Shown piece after piece: positions 1,939-10,985 of a stretch of DNA of 64,000 bases (positions within the stretch are counted from its first letter, which is position 1; every line of letters starts with the position of its first letter). A program made the position numbers and the translations under genes. The stretch comes from Aquabacterium humicola (GTDB taxonomy: Bacteria; Pseudomonadota; Gammaproteobacteria; Burkholderiales; Burkholderiaceae_C). The stretch is from positions 62,001 to 126,000 of the forward strand of contig NZ_JARGNB010000003.1 of assembly GCF_030167915.1 (NCBI RefSeq). The letters are read 5' to 3'. Under the pieces are notes generated by a model. It was not told where the DNA came from, did not search any database, and worked only from the letters and a program-made list of their open reading frames with translations.

Positions 1939-4900
1939 GTGGATCCGATTCCGCGAGCCCTCCTGCTGATCGATGTCGTCGGCAGCACCTCGCTGTCGCA
2001 GGCGTTGGGCGACGTGCGCATGGCCCAGGTGTGGGCGGCGCATGACCGGCTGGCCCGCGACCTTCTGGTGGCGCATGACGGCACCGAGATCGACAAGACC
2101 GACGGCTTCCTGCTGATCTTCGAGAACGCCCGCGACGCCGCCGCCTATGCCCTGGCCTACCACCGGGCGACAGCGGGCCTCGAGCCGCCTCTGCGGGCGC
2201 GCGCCGGTCTTCATGTGGGCGACGTCATCCTCACCCGGAATCCGGCGGCCGATGTCGCGCGCGGCGCGAAACCGCTGGAAGTGGATGGCCTGGCCAAGCC
2301 CATGACCGCGCGCATCATGGCGCTGGCCATCGGTGGGCAGACGCTGCTGAGCAAGGCGGCGCATGCCGCACTGGCGCCTGCGGGCGACCTGGGGTGCGTT
2401 CGCAGCCATGGCCACTACCGGCTCAAAGGCATCGACGAACCGGTGGAACTGCTCGAACTCGGCGTGCCGGGCGAATCGCCGTTCACGCCGCCGCCCGACG
2501 CAGAGCTGTCCTACCGCGTGATTCCCTGGCAGGACGCCTGGCGGCCGGCCCGGGACATCCCGCACGCGCTTCCCGCCGAACGCGACGAGTTCATCGGACG
2601 CAGCAAGGACCTGCAGGCGCTGGCCGGGCGACTCGACGCCGGCGAGCGGCTCGTGACGGTGCTGGGCATGGGGGGGTCGGGCAAGACGCGCCTGGTCCGC
2701 CGCTACGGCCGGGTGTGGCTGGGCGACTGGCCCGGCGGCGTCTACTTCTGCGACCTCTCGGAGGCACGCAGCGCTGCCGGCATCGCCTACGCGGTGGCCG
2801 CCGCGCTCGATGTGCCCCTCGGCACCGTTGACCCGGTCGTGCAGCTCGCCGGCGTCATCGCCGGCCGCGGGAAATGCCTGCTGCTGCTCGACAACTTCGA
2901 GCAGGTCAGCGCGCATGCGGCCGCCACGCTGACACCGTGGCTGGAGCGGGCACCGCAGGCCCGCTTCGTGGTGACGAGCCGCGAAGTGCTGGCGCTGCCC
3001 GCCGAGCACGTCATGCCGCTGGAGCCGCTGGACATCCGCGGTGCCGGCGTCGAGTTGTTCGCCGTGCGGGCGCGCTCACGCAAGGCCGACTTCGAGCTGA
3101 CGGCATCGAACCGGCCCGTCATCGAGGACATCGTCGCGCTGCTCGACGGCTTGCCGCTGGCCATCGAACTGGCGGCGGCCAGGGTGGTGGCGCTGGCACC
3201 CCGCCAACTGCTCGAGCGCCTGAAAGACCGCTTCCAGCTCCTCGTCGGAGCGCGCGGCGCGCCGGCTCGCCAGGCGACCTTGCGCGCGACGATCGACTGG
3301 TCGTGGGCGCTGCTCGCACCGTGGGAGCAGGCGGCGCTCGCGCAGGCGTCGGTGTTCGTCGGTGGCTTCACGCTCGAGGCGGCCGAGCACGTGCTCGATC
3401 TCTCGGCGTGGCAGCAGGCGCCACTGGTGGTCGACGTGGTGCAGTCGCTGGTGGAGCGCAGCCTGCTGCGCGTGCTGTCGTCCGGCACGGGTCAGCGTCT
3501 GGAAAGCGACGAGCCGCGCTTCGGGATGTACGTCAGCATCCAGGCCTACGCGGCCGAGAAGCTGGGCACGATGGGCGCCGCACCCAGCCCCGGCGAGACC
3601 GACGTGGCCGCCGGCGCCGCAGCGCGGCACGGGCGGTACTTCGCTCGATTCGGAACCGTCGAGGCCCTCGACGCGCTGAGAGCGCACGGAGGCGCCGCGC
3701 GCGCGCGAGCCATGGCGGGTGAGGTCGACAACCTGGTCGCCGCGTGCCGGCGCGCTGTCGACCGCGCCGACGGCGCCGTGGCCGTGCCCTGCCTGTCCGC
3801 CACGCTGGCGGTGCTGACCCGCCGAGGCCCCTATCGCGTGGGCGTGGAGTTGGGCCGCAAGGTCTTGGCACTCGACACGCTTCGGGCCGCCGACAGGGGG
3901 TCGGCCGCCTTCCTGCTGGGGGCGATGCTGCGACTCACCGGTGGCAACGACGAGGCGCTTGGCTTTCACGAACAAGGCCTCGCACTTCGACGCGAAATCG
4001 GTGACCGCCGCGCCCAAGGTCGATCACTTTATGCACTCGGAGAAACCTACCGAGCCCTCGGCCGCAGGGAACAGCTGCTGCAAACCCTGGAAGACGCCCT
4101 GTCAGCCGCTCGAGAAACGGGCGACTGCTTCATCGAGGCCATGTGTCTGAACGCGATGGCGAACAGCGCCAACAGCGACGGCCGTATGGACGAGGCCTGG
4201 CGCCTGTATTCGATGGCGCTGGCGTGCTGTCGCCAGCACGGCATGCGAACCGTCGAGGGAAACGTGCTCTGCAACATGGGCATCCAGCGGCGCGTGCTGG
4301 GTCATGGCGCCGAAGCGCAGGCGTACTTCGGCGAGGCCATCGAGATCGCGCGCGAGTGGGGCGATCGCCGAGCCGAGGGCCACGTGCTCGGCGACCGAGG
4401 CGCGATTCATCTGCAGCACGAGCGGCTGGCGGAGGCCTCGGCCGACTTCCAGGCGGCGTTGGCCATTGCGCTGGACACCGGCGACACCCTCTTCGAGGTG
4501 AACGTCCGCCAGATGCTCGGCGAGTTCCACGAGCACCGGGGTGAGCCGGTCGAGGCGCTGGGCCACTACGAGCGGGCGCTGGCACGATCGCGCGAGTGCG
4601 GGTATCGCATCGAAGAAGGGCGCTCGCTGGCCCGGTGGGCACACGTGCAAACCGGGCAGAGCGGGCAGGGTGCATTGACCCAGGCGCGCCAGGCGCTCGT
4701 CGAGGCCGAGGCCATCCTGCGCGAAGCGAACGACCCGATGGGGATGGCGACCTTGCATTGCTTCTTCGCCGACTGCGAGCACGCCGCCGGCGAGCTGACC
4801 GCGGCGCGGCGGCATCTGCAGGCGGCGGAAGGATTGGCGGTGAATCTGGGCGCGGGGGCGGAGAGCGAACTGGGGCGGTACGTGGCGAGGCTGCGGTCGA

Positions 4901-4986
4901 CCCTGGGCGGCTCGGGCGAGGGAGCGGGCGTTCGGCCCGCACGATCGCGATCCAATCCGCCGCCGGCCGCAGACGCCCGTCCCTGA
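1939..4986 (+). CDS. Class III cyclase-like / NB-ARC-type ATPase / TPR regulator
   Basis: About 1015 residues from the GTG at 1939. An upstream in-frame TTG at 1882 would run close to the divergent gene and has no ribosome site. Residues 1-175 are a nucleotide-cyclase homology domain: LLLIDVVGST and KTDGFLLIF supply the two metal-binding Asp positions. The usual transition-state motif VNxAxR is replaced by AKPMTARI, with no Asn, so cyclase activity is doubtful. A Walker A GMGGSGKT lies at about residues 243-250, followed by LLLLDNFEQ (Walker B) and GLPLAIELAA, typical of NB-ARC/AfsR-like STAND ATPases. The second half is TPR repeats. Such proteins act as cytoplasmic signalling switches. It is convergent with the peptide exporter, whose open frame runs antisense into this gene. 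Confidence 0.85.
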   Translation: MDPIPRALLLIDVVGSTSLSQALGDVRMAQVWAAHDRLARDLLVAHDGTEIDKTDGFLLIFENARDAAAYALAYHRATAGLEPPLRARAGLHVGDVILTRNPAADVARGAKPLEVDGLAKPMTARIMALAIGGQTLLSKAAHAALAPAGDLGCVRSHGHYRLKGIDEPVELLELGVPGESPFTPPPDAELSYRVIPWQDAWRPARDIPHALPAERDEFIGRSKDLQALAGRLDAGERLVTVLGMGGSGKTRLVRRYGRVWLGDWPGGVYFCDLSEARSAAGIAYAVAAALDVPLGTVDPVVQLAGVIAGRGKCLLLLDNFEQVSAHAAATLTPWLERAPQARFVVTSREVLALPAEHVMPLEPLDIRGAGVELFAVRARSRKADFELTASNRPVIEDIVALLDGLPLAIELAAARVVALAPRQLLERLKDRFQLLVGARGAPARQATLRATIDWSWALLAPWEQAALAQASVFVGGFTLEAAEHVLDLSAWQQAPLVVDVVQSLVERSLLRVLSSGTGQRLESDEPRFGMYVSIQAYAAEKLGTMGAAPSPGETDVAAGAAARHGRYFARFGTVEALDALRAHGGAARARAMAGEVDNLVAACRRAVDRADGAVAVPCLSATLAVLTRRGPYRVGVELGRKVLALDTLRAADRGSAAFLLGAMLRLTGGNDEALGFHEQGLALRREIGDRRAQGRSLYALGETYRALGRREQLLQTLEDALSAARETGDCFIEAMCLNAMANSANSDGRMDEAWRLYSMALACCRQHGMRTVEGNVLCNMGIQRRVLGHGAEAQAYFGEAIEIAREWGDRRAEGHVLGDRGAIHLQHERLAEASADFQAALAIALDTGDTLFEVNVRQMLGEFHEHRGEPVEALGHYERALARSRECGYRIEEGRSLARWAHVQTGQSGQGALTQARQALVEAEAILREANDPMGMATLHCFFADCEHAAGELTAARRHLQAAEGLAVNLGAGAESELGRYVARLRSTLGGSGEGAGVRPARSRSNPPPAADARP

Positions 4987-7219
4987 TCCGCGTCGCCGAG
5001 CGGCTGCGGTCCGGGTTGCTCCGGAACTCCACCATGCCGTGATCCGGGTCGAGGAAGACGTACGCATCGAACGAAGCGCCGGCCCGAGGTGATGAGCTTG
5101 CGCCGCCGCTCGGCTGGCGTGCCTGTGCGGGAACGTCGCCGGGCGGGGCCGGGCCCAGCACGATCACCCTGTCCGCCGATGCGATGGTCTCCGCCCGGTG
5201 GGCGACGATGACACGGGTGATGCCGAGCGCACGCACGGCATCGTTGACGCGGCGTTCGCAGTCGGCATCGAGGTGGCTGGTGGCTTCGTCAAGCAGCAGC
5301 ATCTGCGGCCGGCGATAGAGCGCACGGGCCAGCAGGATGCGCTGCTTCTGCCCGCCCGACAGCACCGACCCCATGTCGCCGACGAGCGTGGCATAGCCCA
5401 TCGGCATCGCGGCGATGTCCTCGTGCACGGCCGCGGCGCGCGCGCAGGCCTGCACCCATTCGGTGTCCGGCTGCGCATCGAAGAGCGCGATGTTCGCGGC
5501 GATGCTGCCGGCGAACAGCGTATCGTCCTGCATCACGCTGGCGACGGCGGCGCGGTAGCTATCCAGCCCGATCTCGTCCAGCGTGCGGCCACCGCAGGTG
5601 AGGCGGCCCGCGGTCGGGCACAACAGGCCGAGCATCAGCTTGACCAGCGTGGTCTTGCCGCAGCCCGAGGGACCGACGAGGGCCACCGATTCGCCGACCT
5701 CGATGTGCAGGCTGACGTCGTGCAGCACGTCGCGCTCGCCAGGCGCCCAGCGGAAGCTCACCCCGTCGAGCCGCAGTTCGCCGAGCGTGGCCACGTGGGT
5801 CGCCGCCGGCTCCGTCGCGGCCGCGGGCGCGCCTGGCTCGGGTGTACTGGCCAGCACGTCGGCGACGCGGTCGGCGTGCAGGCCGAGCAGGCGCAGGTCC
5901 AGCAGCTTGTCGGTCAACGCGGCGGCGCGCTGCACGAACTGGGTCTTGTAGGCCAGGAAGGCCACCAGCATGCCGATGCTGAAACCGTCGCCGTCGAGCA
6001 CCAGCAGCGCGCCCAGGCCGACGCTGGCCGCTGCTTCCAGCCCCAGCAGCAGGCCCTGGGCGCCCTGCAGGGCCAGCGCCAGGCGCTGTGCACGCAGGCC
6101 GGCATCGATCTGCGCCTGCAGCCGCGCGTCGAACTCGTCGGCGCGGCGCGGCTGGGCATTGAACAGCTTGACGCACTGCACGCCGCGTACCGACTCCAGG
6201 AAGTGGCTCTGCTGGCGCGCCTGCAGCACCAGCTGCTGCTCCACCGCCTCGCGCTGGCGCCGGTGCACCAGCACGCGCACGGTCGCCTGACCGGCCACCG
6301 CGGCCAGTGCCAGCAGCGCCAGCGGGGGGCTGTAGACGACCATCATCGCCAGCGTCAGCAGCGCCAGCGCACCGTCGACCACCGCTTCGGGCGCGCTGGT
6401 GGTCAGGCTGTTCTGCAGGTGCTCCAGCGACTCCAGCCGCGAGGCCACGTCGCCCAACCAGCGCTTTTCGAACCACGCCATCGGCAGCGCGAGCAGGTGG
6501 CGGAACAGCCGCGACGACATCTGCTGCCGCAACCGCGCGCCCAGCTGCGCCAGCAGCCAGCCGCGCAGCGCGGCCGTCACCACCTGCAGCAGCACGATCC
6601 CCGCGAACGCCGCTGCCAGCACGAGCACCAGCTGCTGGTCCTGGCCGTTCAGCGCGCGGTCCACGGTCCACTGCATCTGCAGCGGCAGCACCAGCGCCCA
6701 CAGCTGCAGCAGCAGCGCCAGGCCCAGCACGCGCAGTGCGCTGCCGGCATGCGTGCGCAGATCGCCGGTCATGGCACGCAAAGGCAGTGGCCGTTGCAGG
6801 CGCAGCGGCACGAAGTCCGGCCGCGGCGCCAGCTCCAGCGCCACGCCGCTGAAGTGCCGGGCCAGCTCGTCGAGGCGGAGGCTGCGCCGTCCCATCGCCG
6901 GGTCCAGCAGCTGCACCCGCGTGCCGCGCACCTGCGTCAGCACGACGAAGTGGTCGTCGTCCCAGTGCAGCACGCAGGGCAGGCGCAGGCCGGCCAGGTG
7001 GGCCTGCCCCAGCTTCAGCGCGCGCGGCTGCAGCGCCAGCTGCTCGGCGATGCGCAGCAGGTCGGCCAGCGTCGAGCCGCGCAGTGACACGGCCCAGCGC
7101 TCGCGCGCCGACGGCAGATCGATGTCGTGGCCGTGGTGGCCCGCCACCATCAGCAAGCAGGCCAGCCCGCACTCGGCCGACTCGGCCTGCAGGATCAGCG
7201 GTGTGCGACGGTGGCTCAC
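4130..7219 (-). CDS. Peptidase C39-containing peptide ABC exporter (LanT-like)
   Basis: The start is the GTG at 7219, which overlaps the dehydratase stop as GTGA, so translation is coupled. Residues 1-130 are a C39 double-glycine peptidase: the ECGLAC motif gives Cys17, HWDDDHFVV gives His89, and LLDPAMG gives Asp105. About six membrane helices follow, then an ABC domain with GPSGCGKTT, LSGGQKQR, LLLDEATSHLDAD and VIVAHRAE. It should cut the leader at the double glycine and export the core peptide. The ABC domain ends near 5150, a normal 690-residue length, but no in-frame stop occurs until 4130. The last 340 residues are Arg/Pro-rich antisense of the cyclase gene and are probably not a real domain. 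The 3' end looks damaged, or the true stop was lost. Confidence 0.85.
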   Translation of the reverse strand: MSHRRTPLILQAESAECGLACLLMVAGHHGHDIDLPSARERWAVSLRGSTLADLLRIAEQLALQPRALKLGQAHLAGLRLPCVLHWDDDHFVVLTQVRGTRVQLLDPAMGRRSLRLDELARHFSGVALELAPRPDFVPLRLQRPLPLRAMTGDLRTHAGSALRVLGLALLLQLWALVLPLQMQWTVDRALNGQDQQLVLVLAAAFAGIVLLQVVTAALRGWLLAQLGARLRQQMSSRLFRHLLALPMAWFEKRWLGDVASRLESLEHLQNSLTTSAPEAVVDGALALLTLAMMVVYSPPLALLALAAVAGQATVRVLVHRRQREAVEQQLVLQARQQSHFLESVRGVQCVKLFNAQPRRADEFDARLQAQIDAGLRAQRLALALQGAQGLLLGLEAAASVGLGALLVLDGDGFSIGMLVAFLAYKTQFVQRAAALTDKLLDLRLLGLHADRVADVLASTPEPGAPAAATEPAATHVATLGELRLDGVSFRWAPGERDVLHDVSLHIEVGESVALVGPSGCGKTTLVKLMLGLLCPTAGRLTCGGRTLDEIGLDSYRAAVASVMQDDTLFAGSIAANIALFDAQPDTEWVQACARAAAVHEDIAAMPMGYATLVGDMGSVLSGGQKQRILLARALYRRPQMLLLDEATSHLDADCERRVNDAVRALGITRVIVAHRAETIASADRVIVLGPAPPGDVPAQARQPSGGASSSPRAGASFDAYVFLDPDHGMVEFRSNPDRSRSATRIRDGRLRPAADWIAIVRAERPLPRPSRPGSTAASPRTAPVRSPPPRPDSPPILPPPADAAAPRSARRRRARSRRRSNARSPSPSGRSLRAGWPRPRRAPGAPGSMHPARSARFARVPTGPASALLRCDTRTRAIVPAPARSGPAPRPAHPGARGTRRASGGRSPRRGCRRCPAQWPTPPGSRPRPPPAARAADESRLGRRARGPRLGDRPTRARSRWPRRSTPALRRHDPARAAGCPCCRARFPRRFACRAGDSTPAPSNTGARPRPYGRRCWRCSPSRSDTWPR

Positions 7220-9258
7220 GGTGCCACCGACCGCGCCGGTCGCGCCTGTTGCGCGGGCTGCGCGCGCCGGGCCCGGCTGGCCGCCAGGCTGGCCGCGATG
7301 GTCTGCTGCTGGCGCGCCAGGTCCTCTTCTCCGCAGGCGTCGAGCTGCGCCATCACGTCGTTCCAGGACGCGCCCTGCAGCACCGCGGGCACGCAGCCGC
7401 CGGCGCCATCGTGCAGGCCGAGCGCGTCGGTGCGGCTGGCGAAGTACGGCACGTCCAGCTGGCCGAGGGCCGACTGCTCGCAGGTCAGCAGCGGCCAGGC
7501 CGCGCTGCGGCGACCGGCGCGCAGGAAGACGCAGCTCAGCCGTTCGAGCTCGATCGAGAAGTCCGCGCCGTTGCGCAGCGCCGCCGGCTGCAGCAGGTGG
7601 GCCTGCAACCCGGCATAGACAGCGGTGTCGCGGAACACATGCCTTACCGGCAAGCCGCGCCAGGCGGCCAGCGGGCCTTCGGGGGCGCGCAGCACCTCGC
7701 GCTGACGGACGACGAAGCGGTACAGGGTGTCGAAGCCGGCCCGCAGCTCGGGCTCGAAATCCTCGGGCGGCAGGCGAAGGTCGTCTCCGCAGCGGGGCGT
7801 GTGGTGCTGCGCCTGCAGCGGCTGCTGCGCGGGCACGCCCGGCCGCCGGTGCATCGCATCGGTGTTGAGGCCGATCCATCCGGGCTGCGCCTCGTCGGCT
7901 TCGTCGGACCCCGTCAGGCCGCTGACGTCGGCGCGGGCGGGCAACGAGCCCGGCTCCGCATCGAGTTCGGGCAGCAGGCCGGTGCGCAGCACGCCCTCGG
8001 CCGCGCGGGCCGATTGTTCGAAGTCCAGGTCGGGGCGCAGCTCCGGGTGGCACAGCGTCTCGGTGTCGACCAGCACTGGCTGCTCGCCATCGGCGATCAG
8101 GTTCTCGAGGTGCGCATCCGTGCCGCGCAGCAGGTGCAGCAGGGCCAGCAGCTGGCCGGCCCGGCGGTAGAAGCGAGCCACCGCGGCGCGATCGTCGCAG
8201 GGTCGGTTCGGCACGAAGGCGCACCAGCCGTAGCGGCCTTGGTCGAGCACCGCGACCGTCTCCATCGCCAGCAGGCCGTGGCGGGCGTTGCACCAGTCGA
8301 GCAGCTGGTTCCAGGCGACGTCCAGCGCCAGGCTCCGGGGCTTGTAGACCAGCCGCAGGCCGTTGTCGAACTTCAGCAGCACGGTGCCGCGCCCCCCGCC
8401 ATGGGCGTCGGACTGCGCGGCGCGCAGTGCCACCACCGGTCCGATCGGGCGGCCGCCGGCCGCGAAGCAGGCCTGCAGCAGGTCGCTGTCCTCGACCAGG
8501 CGCCCCATCAGCTCGGCGGTGGTTTCGACCCACTGGTCGATCGCCGTCGCCAGCAGGCGGCCCAGCACCGGGTAGCGGTGCAGCAGGCCGGCACCGCCGT
8601 CCTGCAGGATTGCCGCGACGAAACGCCGGTAGCGCAACGCACCGGCGTGCGGATCGAGCGGCCCGAAGCGCCGCAGCCAGCGCTCGCCGGCGGGCAGCGT
8701 GGCCTCGAACTCATGCTGCAGCGTCGGCGCGGCCACTTCCGCCAGCCGATGAAGCAGCGCGCGCGCCAGCTGATCGAGGGCCACGCCGGACAGCGGGTCG
8801 CGCCCGGGGCCGATGCGCGTCACGGCCGCGTGCTGGCGCAGCCGGCCGCGCGCCAGGCTCACCAGCGGCAGCAGCAGCGGGGCGAACGGCACGGCGGCCG
8901 CGGCATCGTCCGCCGGCTCGGACTGCCGCCAGGCCAGCGACAACGCGGCCAGCGTGCGCGCCCAGGCGGGCAAGGCTGCCCAAGGTGCTGGTCCATGCTC
9001 GCTCAGCAGCGTGGCCGCCCGCGGTTCATCGAGGCTGTCCCAGGCCAGGCGCAGGCGAAGGGCTTCGGCCGGGGCCAGCTGCGACGCGGCCAGCCGCTGC
9101 TGCCAGACCTGCAGGCGATGCTGCACGGCGGCTTCGTCGCGGCGGTCGATGCCGTCAGGTGCGGCGCTCGCGCGCTCCCATAGGTAGCTTGCTCGCCGGG
9201 CCAGCTCGTCGACCGGCAGTGCCGGCCGCTGGCGACGCGGGACGTGACGAGGGAACAT
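7216..9258 (-). CDS. Stand-alone LanM-type lanthipeptide dehydratase (DUF4135), no cyclase domain
   Basis: 680 residues; ATG at 9258 with AGGAGG seven bases upstream. LanM enzymes phosphorylate Ser/Thr of a precursor with ATP and then eliminate phosphate to give dehydroalanine/dehydrobutyrine; their C-terminal LanC half then adds Cys. The dehydratase half looks complete. VYKPRS gives the nucleotide-binding Lys306, GTDAHLEN gives Asp381, His383 and Asn386, VDTETL gives Asp398, and VFRDTAVY holds the Arg543/Thr545 elimination-type motif; DVPYFASRTD marks the domain end. The protein stops within about 70 residues of that point, and its TGA overlaps the exporter start. No LanC-like zinc motif follows here or elsewhere in the window. 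Full LanM proteins are about 1000 residues, so the cyclase is cleanly absent. It lies 66 bases after the precursor gene. Confidence 0.88.
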   Translation of the reverse strand: MFPRHVPRRQRPALPVDELARRASYLWERASAAPDGIDRRDEAAVQHRLQVWQQRLAASQLAPAEALRLRLAWDSLDEPRAATLLSEHGPAPWAALPAWARTLAALSLAWRQSEPADDAAAAVPFAPLLLPLVSLARGRLRQHAAVTRIGPGRDPLSGVALDQLARALLHRLAEVAAPTLQHEFEATLPAGERWLRRFGPLDPHAGALRYRRFVAAILQDGGAGLLHRYPVLGRLLATAIDQWVETTAELMGRLVEDSDLLQACFAAGGRPIGPVVALRAAQSDAHGGGRGTVLLKFDNGLRLVYKPRSLALDVAWNQLLDWCNARHGLLAMETVAVLDQGRYGWCAFVPNRPCDDRAAVARFYRRAGQLLALLHLLRGTDAHLENLIADGEQPVLVDTETLCHPELRPDLDFEQSARAAEGVLRTGLLPELDAEPGSLPARADVSGLTGSDEADEAQPGWIGLNTDAMHRRPGVPAQQPLQAQHHTPRCGDDLRLPPEDFEPELRAGFDTLYRFVVRQREVLRAPEGPLAAWRGLPVRHVFRDTAVYAGLQAHLLQPAALRNGADFSIELERLSCVFLRAGRRSAAWPLLTCEQSALGQLDVPYFASRTDALGLHDGAGGCVPAVLQGASWNDVMAQLDACGEEDLARQQQTIAASLAASRARRAQPAQQARPARSVAP

Positions 9259-9324
9259 GCGGCGGCCTCCTGGCAGACACGGCTGAAGGGCCGCGGGCGT
9301 TGGCAGCGGCGGCCCGAGAACGCG

Positions 9325-9603
9325 TCAGAAAGGCGCGGATTGCTCGTCGCTCGGGCTGACCCAGCGGATGGTCTTGCGAGTCTTCGTGCCGCCGCTCACC
9401 GCCAGCAGCTCGGCGGCGGAGAGCTCGCGCGGCCGGCCGGGGTCGTCCGTCAGGGCCTGGCGCGCAGCGTCGTGGCTCAGCCGGTGGCCCCGTGCGGCGG
9501 CCGTGTCGACCAGTGCGGCGACGGCGTCGCCGACGGAGCGCATCTGCATCAGGCGGCGCGCCAGCAGGGGGTCCGTCAGCAGGGATTCGATGGTGCTGTT
9601 CAT
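9325..9603 (-). CDS. Nif11-like RiPP precursor peptide, Cys-free core
   Basis: 92 residues from the second of two adjacent ATGs, which is six bases from an AAAGGA ribosome site; the first ATG at 9606 is also possible. The leader (about 72 residues) is predicted helical with TIESLLTDPLLARRL near the start and ELSAAELLAVSGG at its end. This is the usual Nif11-type leader ending in a double-glycine site. The predicted core after VSGG is the 20 residues TKTRKTIRWVSPSDEQSAPF, with three Thr, three Ser and no Cys. It is the obvious substrate of the neighbouring dehydratase and C39 exporter. Because there is no Cys, a lanthionine ring cannot form within this peptide. The cleavage site is inferred from the family rule. 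Confidence 0.85.
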   Translation of the reverse strand: MNSTIESLLTDPLLARRLMQMRSVGDAVAALVDTAAARGHRLSHDAARQALTDDPGRPRELSAAELLAVSGGTKTRKTIRWVSPSDEQSAPF

Positions 9604-9799
9604 CATGGGTCCTTTGCGGAAACGAAGATCCGGGACGTCCCCGGGGCCACGGGCCCTCGCTGTGTCGCGGGCGGGCCCGATTCGGAAGCCGCGGCCTCGA
9701 TGGCCCGCGACGCCTGCAAGAGGCTAGGCGAGCGGGCAGCGCCCGTCATGAGCCGGCGCTACCAGGGGCGGCAGCTTGTTCGCGCGCGTCGCGAAGTCA

Positions 9800-9815
9800 G
9801 GTGGTACGGGAGTAC
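9800..9815. promoter_or_regulatory. Perfect GGTAC/GTACC palindrome upstream of the RiPP precursor
   Basis: The sequence TGGTACGGGAGTACCA has perfect 6-base arms around a 4-base centre. It lies between the 33-residue peptide gene and the precursor gene, about 200 bases before the precursor start. It may be an operator for the nearby LuxR-type regulator, or a small hairpin in the transcript. No good sigma-70 promoter stands out around it. Function is inferred only from symmetry and position. Confidence 0.4.
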
Positions 9816-9839
9816 CAGACGCGGGCGCATGCAACCTGG

Positions 9840-9941
9840 TCAGAACATCGCGCTGATCACGCCGAACGACATCGCCGGGGCGACGAGGCCGAAGCACAGG
9901 ACGAAGGCGGCGGTGCACAGGTTGTCGAAGAAGGTGTTCAT
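9840..9941 (-). CDS. 33-residue hydrophobic peptide
   Basis: The ATG at 9941 has a good CAGGAG ribosome site eight bases upstream, and the frame closes after 33 codons. The peptide begins MNTFFDNLCTAAF and continues as one long hydrophobic helix with a second Cys, ending in VISAMF. It would sit in the inner membrane. It lies directly upstream of the RiPP precursor on the same strand and downstream of the LuxR-type gene. It has no leader-like acidic helix or double glycine, so I do not call it a precursor. An immunity or accessory peptide is possible. I recognise no family. Confidence 0.55.
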   Translation of the reverse strand: MNTFFDNLCTAAFVLCFGLVAPAMSFGVISAMF

Positions 9942-10060: not shown

Positions 10061-10423
10061 TCACCATGCGCCGCGGCCGTAGCCGGCCTGGCGGGCCTGC
10101 ACGATGGCCTGGGCTCGGCGCGTGACGCCGAGCTTGGCGAAGATGCGCGCAACGTGGTTGCGCAGCGTGTGCGGGCTGATGCCGAGTTCGCTGCTGATCT
10201 GGCCGTTCGACTGGCCCCGTGCGATCAACTCCAGCACCTCGCGCTCGCGCGGGGATGACTGCGGCCTGTCGGTCGACGCGCTGGCCACGTGCCGGATCAG
10301 GAGCAGCCAGTTGGCAACGTTGGCGGCAGCGAAGGCCGTGCATGCCAGCGCGATCAGGCGATAGGCGAATGCCCGCCCGCGCTGCGGGTCGCCGAACCGT
10401 CGCAGAGTCCGTGCTGCCGCCAT
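10061..10423 (-). CDS. LuxR-type HTH regulator with a membrane segment
   Basis: About 120 residues from the ATG at 10423; the frame is open to 10576, and no start has a convincing ribosome site. Residues 20-46 are hydrophobic (FAYRLIALACTAFAAANVAN) and could form one membrane helix. The C-terminal 65 residues are a typical LuxR/GerE helix-turn-helix with SPREREVLELIARGQSN, IAxELGIS-like ISSELGISPHTLRNHV, and a final RRAQAIVQARQ helix. There is no receiver domain. It is the first gene on the minus strand before the 33-residue peptide and RiPP genes, so it is the best candidate for their regulator. It may be a shortened remnant of a longer protein, since the DNA just upstream carries gene fragments. 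Confidence 0.7.
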   Translation of the reverse strand: MAAARTLRRFGDPQRGRAFAYRLIALACTAFAAANVANWLLLIRHVASASTDRPQSSPREREVLELIARGQSNGQISSELGISPHTLRNHVARIFAKLGVTRRAQAIVQARQAGYGRGAW

Positions 10424-10535
10424 GCGGCGAGCACGCTGCGGCAGCTCAGGCCCCACTCGTCGACCGACGGACCCTCGACCAGGCTGCCGAAGTGCCTGAG
10501 CATCTGGAAGCTCGCTTCGGCACGCCGCCGAGGCC

Positions 10536-10985
10536 TTGCGAACCGGACTCGAACTCGTGAGGCTGCTCGAAGGCAACCGTCACCGCGGCCGCCTGACCAT
10601 CGCGCGCACGAACCTCATGCAGGCCTGGCTCGCCAGCGACGAGCCGGCGCAGGCGCGCGCGCTGGCGCTCATCGGTTGGCCGGAGGCGGCGGCCTACGCG
10701 AGCCGGGCGTCGTGGGCCGACGGCCTGTCGCTGCTGGCGGCGATGGAGCACCGCCCGCGTGCCAGCGCGATGCTGCGCGGTTATGCCGACGCCCCATATG
10801 CCGCCACGCAGAACACGCGCCAGGTCGCCGAAAGCATCACGGTGGAGCGCGCCGAACAGCTGGCGCGCCAATCGCTCGCCGCGGGCGAGTTCAAGCGCCT
10901 GAAGGCCGAAGGCGCGCTGCTGCGCGATGCGGACATCGCGGCGATCGCGTTCGGCGAGCGCGACGAGGGCACGCCGGCCTCCTGA
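10536..10985 (+). pseudogene. C-terminal fragment of an ATPase/TPR-type regulator
   Basis: 149 residues. The text WADGLSLLAAMEHRPRASAM and the closing EFKRLKAEGALLRDADIAAI match, from memory, the C-terminal end of large AfsR/NB-ARC/TPR regulators common in Burkholderiales. The expected DNA-binding, P-loop and first TPR parts are missing upstream, where the divergent LuxR-type gene sits. There is no good ribosome site at the ATG. I therefore read it as the 3' remnant of a larger gene. It could be expressed as a small protein, but nothing shows that. Confidence 0.5.

What the first reader, a model, noticed from the sequence alone, without database searches (positions are those of the whole stretch)
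7216..9603. RiPP locus with a cyclase-less LanM dehydratase and a Cys-free precursor
Seen: a complete LanM-type dehydratase (Lys306, Asp381, His383, Asn386, Asp398, Arg543/Thr545) that stops within about 70 residues of the domain end, a Nif11-like leader ending in a double glycine, and a 20-residue core with six Ser/Thr and no Cys. Known: class II lanthipeptides need the LanC half and Cys to form rings. Inference: the product is a linear peptide carrying dehydroalanine/dehydrobutyrine, or these are used by another chemistry. Loss of both the cyclase and the Cys in the same locus argues for a designed pathway and not random decay. I cannot recall a characterised example with this exact pairing.
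Basis: partly seen in the sequence, partly recalled or inferred. Interest (0 to 1): 0.92.

Follow-up and report, generated by a model that had tools for sequence, protein, structure and literature searches.

The report
Ring-less lanthipeptide-like peptide gene cluster
A bacterial gene cluster appears to make a small exported peptide with an enzyme that should remove water from its serines and threonines but lacks the half that closes rings, acting on a peptide without the cysteine that rings need; a few such ring-less relatives are already known.

Summary
A 680-aa LanM dehydratase (7216-9258, minus) has no cyclase half. It follows a Nif11-leader, double-glycine precursor with a 20-aa Cys-free core (9325-9606) and overlaps (GTGA) a C39 peptidase-exporter. 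The pairing is not unprecedented. Phospeptin (EmbA/EmbM) pairs a Nif11-leader, Cys-free precursor with a cyclase-less LanM, but EmbM has mutated elimination residues and only phosphorylates. PoyF is a cyclase-less dehydratase. A 2024 paper describes a Pseudanabaena LanM without zinc ligands beside a Cys-free precursor. Added here: among 61 related LanM ORFs with a Nif11/NHLP precursor nearby, a core with two or more Cys lies near 49 of 51 with an intact zinc site and 0 of 10 (8 loci) with a lost one. Tree-corrected support is weak: two well-supported independent contrasts, both concordant. Best reading: a linear dehydroamino-acid peptide, possibly with an N-terminal ketoacyl cap from Thr1; untested. 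The genome's one other LanC-like gene is probably unrelated.

The parts
9388..9606 (-). precursor leader, 73 aa, Nif11 family, ends ...ELSAAELLAVSGG
   Evidence: translation; held-out HMM E 1.2e-7; leader alignment A2
9328..9387 (-). precursor core TKTRKTIRWVSPSDEQSAPF (20 aa, 3 Thr, 3 Ser, no Cys); stop codon at 9325-9327
7216..9258 (-). single-domain LanM-type dehydratase, 680 aa, no cyclase domain; D284 H286 R539 T545 (elimination) and K306 D381 H383 N386 D398 (kinase)
   Evidence: predicted model pLDDT 84.1, pTM 0.88; best PDB matches LicM2 and CylM
5000..7219 (-). peptidase-containing ABC exporter (C39 peptidase, ABC membrane, ATPase); GTG start overlaps the dehydratase stop; codon-position signal fades near 5000 while the in-frame stop is only at 4130
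9840..9941 (-). 33-aa ORF MNTFFDNLCTAAFVLCFGLVAPAMSFGVISAMF, role unknown; GC at third codon position 0.97
   Evidence: no Pfam or NCBIfam match
10061..10576 (-). LuxR/NarL-type HTH regulator, partial matches only, start uncertain
   Evidence: all listed matches below the curated cut-offs
9802..9817 (.). perfect palindrome TGGTACGGGAGTACCA between the 33-aa ORF and the precursor, possible operator
   Evidence: 28 of 100 shuffles hold at least one match at up to 2 mismatches, so weak

Best explanation
A small RiPP operon. The Nif11-type leader brings the precursor to a single-domain LanM dehydratase, which phosphorylates core Ser/Thr and then eliminates the phosphate, giving a linear peptide with dehydroalanine/dehydrobutyrine. 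The C39 exporter cuts after GG and secretes it. Because Thr is the first core residue, dehydration there would leave an N-terminal dehydrobutyrine after cutting, which should hydrolyse to a 2-oxobutyryl cap. Shown here: the gene set and order, absence of the cyclase half, the nine catalytic residues, the leader family and the Cys-free core. Inferred: catalysis, the number of dehydrations, cutting and export, the cap, and the biological role, most likely a secreted antagonistic or signalling peptide.
For: All nine CylM-type residues present. The model of the enzyme is confident and closest to LicM2 and CylM. The dehydratase half of CylM alone (1-625) dehydrates efficiently (PMC4550811 passages), and PMC10676384 cites excised CylM, HalM2 and NukM dehydratase domains as sufficient (passages). 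The leader is related to leaders that lie beside LanMs. Relatives in the same gene order, precursor-LanM-C39 exporter, exist in Nostoc (L018). LanM ORFs with lost zinc sites keep all nine dehydratase residues and lie beside Cys-poor cores. No second LanM in the genome and no second precursor by the A2 profile (own second hit E 0.126).
Against: EmbM was also predicted to dehydrate and did not. The excised dehydratase domain of CcaM was inactive. No close ortholog was found, so purifying selection could not be tested. The enzyme sits on a long branch among full-length LanMs. The exporter has no in-frame stop at its natural end. Nothing was measured.
Confidence: 0.6

Rival explanations
1. Phospeptin-like: the enzyme phosphorylates Ser/Thr and the phosphopeptide is the end product.
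For: Same architecture as EmbA/EmbM: Nif11 leader, GG, Cys-free core, cyclase-less LanM as sole maturase.
Against: [quoted passage not shown]
Confidence: 0.15
2. Dehydration followed by a non-Cys crosslink, for example lysinoalanine between Lys2/Lys5 and a Dha, spontaneous or by an unlinked enzyme.
For: Core has two Lys and six Ser/Thr. Lysinoalanine is discussed for the Cys-free Pseudanabaena precursor (PMC11356792 passages).
Against: No second modifying enzyme between exporter and regulator. No DurN/CinN-like search was made here.
Confidence: 0.1
3. A decaying lanthipeptide locus that lost its cyclase recently.
For: Only 1 of 21 genomes of the genus has a DUF4135 match. A Chrysosporum relative looks truncated by rearrangement (L093), and G846 has broken pieces (L118). 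The exporter lacks an in-frame stop at its natural end.
Against: Open frames with strong codon-position signal in all three genes, clean GTGA junction, intact catalytic residues in dehydratase; no leftover cyclase sequence.
Confidence: 0.1
4. Ring closure in trans by the LanC-like protein on contig C40, on this or another peptide.
For: One LANC_like match in the genome (E 5.5e-14); its sequence holds YCHG and LCHG motifs.
Against: Different contig, beside a class-V aminotransferase; LANC_like matches in 4 of 20 other genomes of the genus, all without DUF4135. The core has no Cys.
Confidence: 0.04

Closest known systems
Phospeptin EmbA/EmbM (Ca. Eudoremicrobium malaspinii; PMC9259500, PMC9505594)
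   Same: Nif11-type leader, double glycine, Cys-free core, one LanM-like maturase without cyclase domain
   Different: EmbM's elimination site is mutated and it makes a diphosphorylated peptide; here the four elimination residues are present.
PoyF of polytheonamide and PoyF-like dehydratase in L010 (G235)
   Same: cyclase-less LanM dehydratase, Cys-free precursor; PoyF dehydrates the N-terminal core Thr (PMC9505594 passages)
   Different: proteusins have a nitrile-hydratase-type leader and several other maturases (L010: radical SAM, methyltransferase-like); none here
Cyanobacterial Nif11/LanM clusters (cyanotins, PMC7268733) and Pseudanabaena galeata pPg_03 (PMC11356792; my L020)
   Same: leader family and gene set; some cyanotins lack Cys; P. 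galeata LanM has no zinc ligands and its precursor no Cys
   Different: there the cyclase domain is still present as a polypeptide; here it is absent
Class II lanthipeptide synthetases CylM and LicM2
   Same: dehydratase fold and catalytic residues
   Different: no cyclase half, no Cys in the substrate

Membership tests
Class II lanthipeptide system | LanM dehydratase domain with kinase and elimination residues | tested here: met
Class II lanthipeptide system | LanC-type cyclase domain in the same protein | tested here: not met
   LanM profile matched only to 532 of 932; next gene starts inside the stop codon
Class II lanthipeptide system | Cys in the core for thioether rings | tested here: not met
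   no Cys in the 93-aa precursor
Nif11-type RiPP precursors | leader over the curated TIGR03798 cut-off | tested here: not met
   16.1 bits against 32.3
Nif11-type RiPP precursors | leader homologous to known LanM-associated Nif11 leaders, ending in GG | tested here: met
   held-out HMM E 1.2e-7, first of 457 ORFs
Phospeptin-type pathway | Nif11-like leader, Cys-free core, cyclase-less LanM as sole maturase | tested here: met
Phospeptin-type pathway | defective elimination site, phosphorylated end product | tested here: not met
   elimination residues D284, H286, R539, T545 present; the product itself could not be tested
Proteusin (PoyF-type) | nitrile-hydratase-like leader and radical SAM maturases | tested here: not met
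   leader is Nif11-type; no such gene in the operon

The most novel reading that the evidence does not exclude
The cluster belongs to a recurrent but largely uncharacterised class of dehydratase-only LanM pathways, in which cyclase function and core Cys are lost together again and again, and it is the minimal form: cyclase deleted, elimination site intact, one maturase. Its product would be a linear dehydropeptide with an N-terminal 2-oxobutyryl cap made from Thr1.
Probability: 0.35. Interest if true: 0.62.

Novelty: new variant of a known kind. Interest (0 to 1): 0.45.

Why it matters
If right, this is a natural single-domain dehydratase acting on a short linear substrate: a simple source of Dha/Dhb peptides and a direct test of what such peptides do without rings. 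Set beside phospeptin, it asks whether the presence or loss of the elimination residues decides between dehydropeptide and phosphopeptide. The association of zinc-site loss with Cys-poor cores suggests a predictable class that lanthipeptide mining discards (PMC7268733 did not count Cys-free precursors as lanthipeptides; passages).

Tried and rejected
LanC in trans: one LANC_like gene elsewhere, judged unrelated, not excluded. Second precursor in the genome: none by the curated model (which did not list the window precursor either) nor by profile A2. Single-protein scan of genome contigs found no relative. tblastn of the precursor and of the 33-aa ORF against plasmids: no match. Viral-contig scan: 1 weak relative of 54 stretches. 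Empty site in the genus: the flanking gene's relatives were at most 47% identical, so no orthologous site. PADLOC: only exporter ATPase similarities. Promoter and terminator scan: nothing above chance. Myxococcota-type sample around L104: 1 of 235 genomes, the centre itself. L091's second LanM-like ORF looks like an inverted duplicate in a MAG contig and was not read as a cyclase-less gene. Independent-contrast test is underpowered: 2 supported pairs, sign test p 0.5.

Rows dropped before counts: ORFs open at a contig end and nine ORFs of loci with short flanks (L004-L006, L023-L028). Of 85 ORFs kept, 72 had an intact zinc motif; 21 of these and 3 of the 13 others had no precursor within 3 kb. 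The ten zinc-lost ORFs lie in 8 loci (three in L086, partly sharing peptides). In one search, six Proteobacterial-side loci were scored for Cys by hand, and window and L010 were added. Partial DUF4135 hits in G138, G165, G279 and G659 were not resolved.

Full report
What is there. The minus strand carries, in order, a LuxR-type HTH gene (10061-10576), a 33-aa ORF (9840-9941), a precursor (9325-9606), a LanM-type dehydratase (7216-9258) and a C39 peptidase-exporter (7219 to about 5000). Dehydratase and exporter overlap by GTGA, so a cyclase cannot hide in between. The three main genes show high third-position GC (0.90-0.92). The exporter's coding signal fades near 5000, but the frame has no stop before 4130, antisense to the neighbouring gene; I leave this open.

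The enzyme. DUF4135 scores 360 bits and the LanM model stops at position 532 of 932. CylM's kinase residues are K274, D347, H349, N352, D364 and its elimination residues D252, H254, R506, T512 (PMC4550811, passages). Their equivalents here are K306, D381, H383, N386, D398 and D284, H286, R539, T545. Across 105 aligned dehydratase domains these sites are mostly invariant, with T512 the least so (98 Thr, 4 Ser, 1 Glu, 2 gaps). The AlphaFold model is confident (pLDDT 84.1, pTM 0.88) and Foldseek ranks LicM2 and CylM first (TM by query 0.65 and 0.64). CylM 1-625 alone dehydrates efficiently. Against generalising: CcaM's excised dehydratase domain was inactive (PMC10676384 passages).

The precursor. 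The curated Nif11 model misses its cut-off, but a held-out profile of ten leaders from LanM loci finds the ORF at E 1.2e-7, first of 457. The relatives' cores shown in A2 contain Cys. The core here is TKTRKTIRWVSPSDEQSAPF.

Relatives. DUF4135 is rare around this genome. Matches, own genome included: 1 of 21 in the genus, 7 of 399 in the family, 8 of 399 in the order, 9 of 398 in the phylum. Among them I recognised one other cyclase-less enzyme, in G235 (L010, about 610 aa), in a proteusin-like locus with an NHase-type leader, radical SAM and methyltransferase-like genes; two of these domain matches are below the Pfam cut-offs. G846 holds broken pieces; several partial hits were not resolved. 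A genome-contig scan with a 5-sequence alignment found 206 relatives and kept 80. Of these 80, 76 have more than 250 aa after the dehydratase match; L085 and L102 run off the contig, L105 is split and L093 is truncated. The window enzyme lies on a long branch among full-length LanMs, its exact place unresolved.

Cyclase and Cys go together. I read the zinc motif (WC.G and C[CH]G) of 85 LanM ORFs and the Nif11/NHLP precursors within 3 kb. With intact zinc motif and a precursor: 51 ORFs, all 51 with at least one Cys core, 49 with a core of two or more Cys. With lost motif: 10 ORFs in 8 loci, none with a two-Cys core, 3 with one single-Cys core, 7 with no Cys (Fisher 7e-10 for two or more Cys, uncorrected for kinship and shared loci). 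Five other settings of distance, strand, E-value and core length keep the pattern. None of the zinc-lost ORFs has a substitution at the nine dehydratase sites. On a dehydratase tree of 69 rows the state changes at least six times, but only two independent contrasts lie on well-supported branches; both agree for two or more Cys, and 1.7 of 2 on average for any Cys; the sign test cannot reach significance. Ser/Thr at core position 1 occurs in 10 of 31 peptides beside zinc-lost ORFs and 5 of 94 beside intact ones; the 31 include many from two loci.

What is known. Paoli et al. (PMC9259500; passages, section 8) and a review (PMC9505594; passages, section 9) describe phospeptin: Nif11-like leader, GG, no Cys, sole maturase without cyclase, mutated elimination site, diphosphorylated product. 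The review names PoyF as another LanM-like dehydratase without cyclase, acting on the N-terminal core Thr. PMC7268733 (passages) notes that some cyanotin cores lack Cys. PMC11356792 (passages) describes P. galeata's zinc-less LanM beside a Cys-free precursor, the plasmid I fetched as L020 (its locus tags are shifted against those in my table). In ten paper searches I saw no characterised Nif11/Cys-free pathway whose sole maturase is a cyclase-less LanM with an intact elimination site; the library holds open-licence papers only.

Elsewhere in the genome. One LANC_like match lies on another contig beside a class-V aminotransferase; 4 of 20 other genomes of the genus have such matches and none has DUF4135. 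The own genome has one DUF4135 gene.

Conclusion. A single-maturase dehydratase-only Nif11 pathway, most likely yielding a linear dehydropeptide; the phosphopeptide outcome of phospeptin is the main rival. The N-terminal cap is inferred from Thr1 and from PoyF's chemistry, and is not tested.

Noticed in passing
L158 (G417:C17:50000-69500), peptide near 8929-9282: In another genome of the genus without DUF4135, a Nif11-like leader (E 1.1e-4) carries a Cys-free, Ser/Thr-rich core QVTTTTTQASSGASTSARRRSAGGLI beside Stealth-type, APH-like, 2OG-oxygenase and (by eye) glycosyltransferase, HlyD and C39-exporter genes; perhaps a sugar- or phosphate-decorated RiPP.
   Followed up: partly
L121 (G896:C1:428000-446000): Same family as the window genome: several Nif11-like precursors with Cys around a full-length LanM of 1117 aa.
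   Followed up: no
L072, L083, L101, L107: A LanM clade whose kinase residues are substituted (D347 N/K, H349 D/G/Q) while the zinc motif is kept: the mirror image, possibly cyclase-only.
   Followed up: no
L014, L015: Partial DUF4135 matches in proteins of about 720-775 aa, each after a small ORF that by eye resembles a type III secretion chaperone; untested.
   Followed up: no
window 4130-5000: The exporter frame stays open about 290 codons past its coding signal, antisense to the gene at 1939-4986: overlap or sequence error.
   Followed up: partly
window 9840-9941: 33-aa hydrophobic ORF with two Cys and a plausible ribosome site between regulator and precursor.
   Followed up: partly
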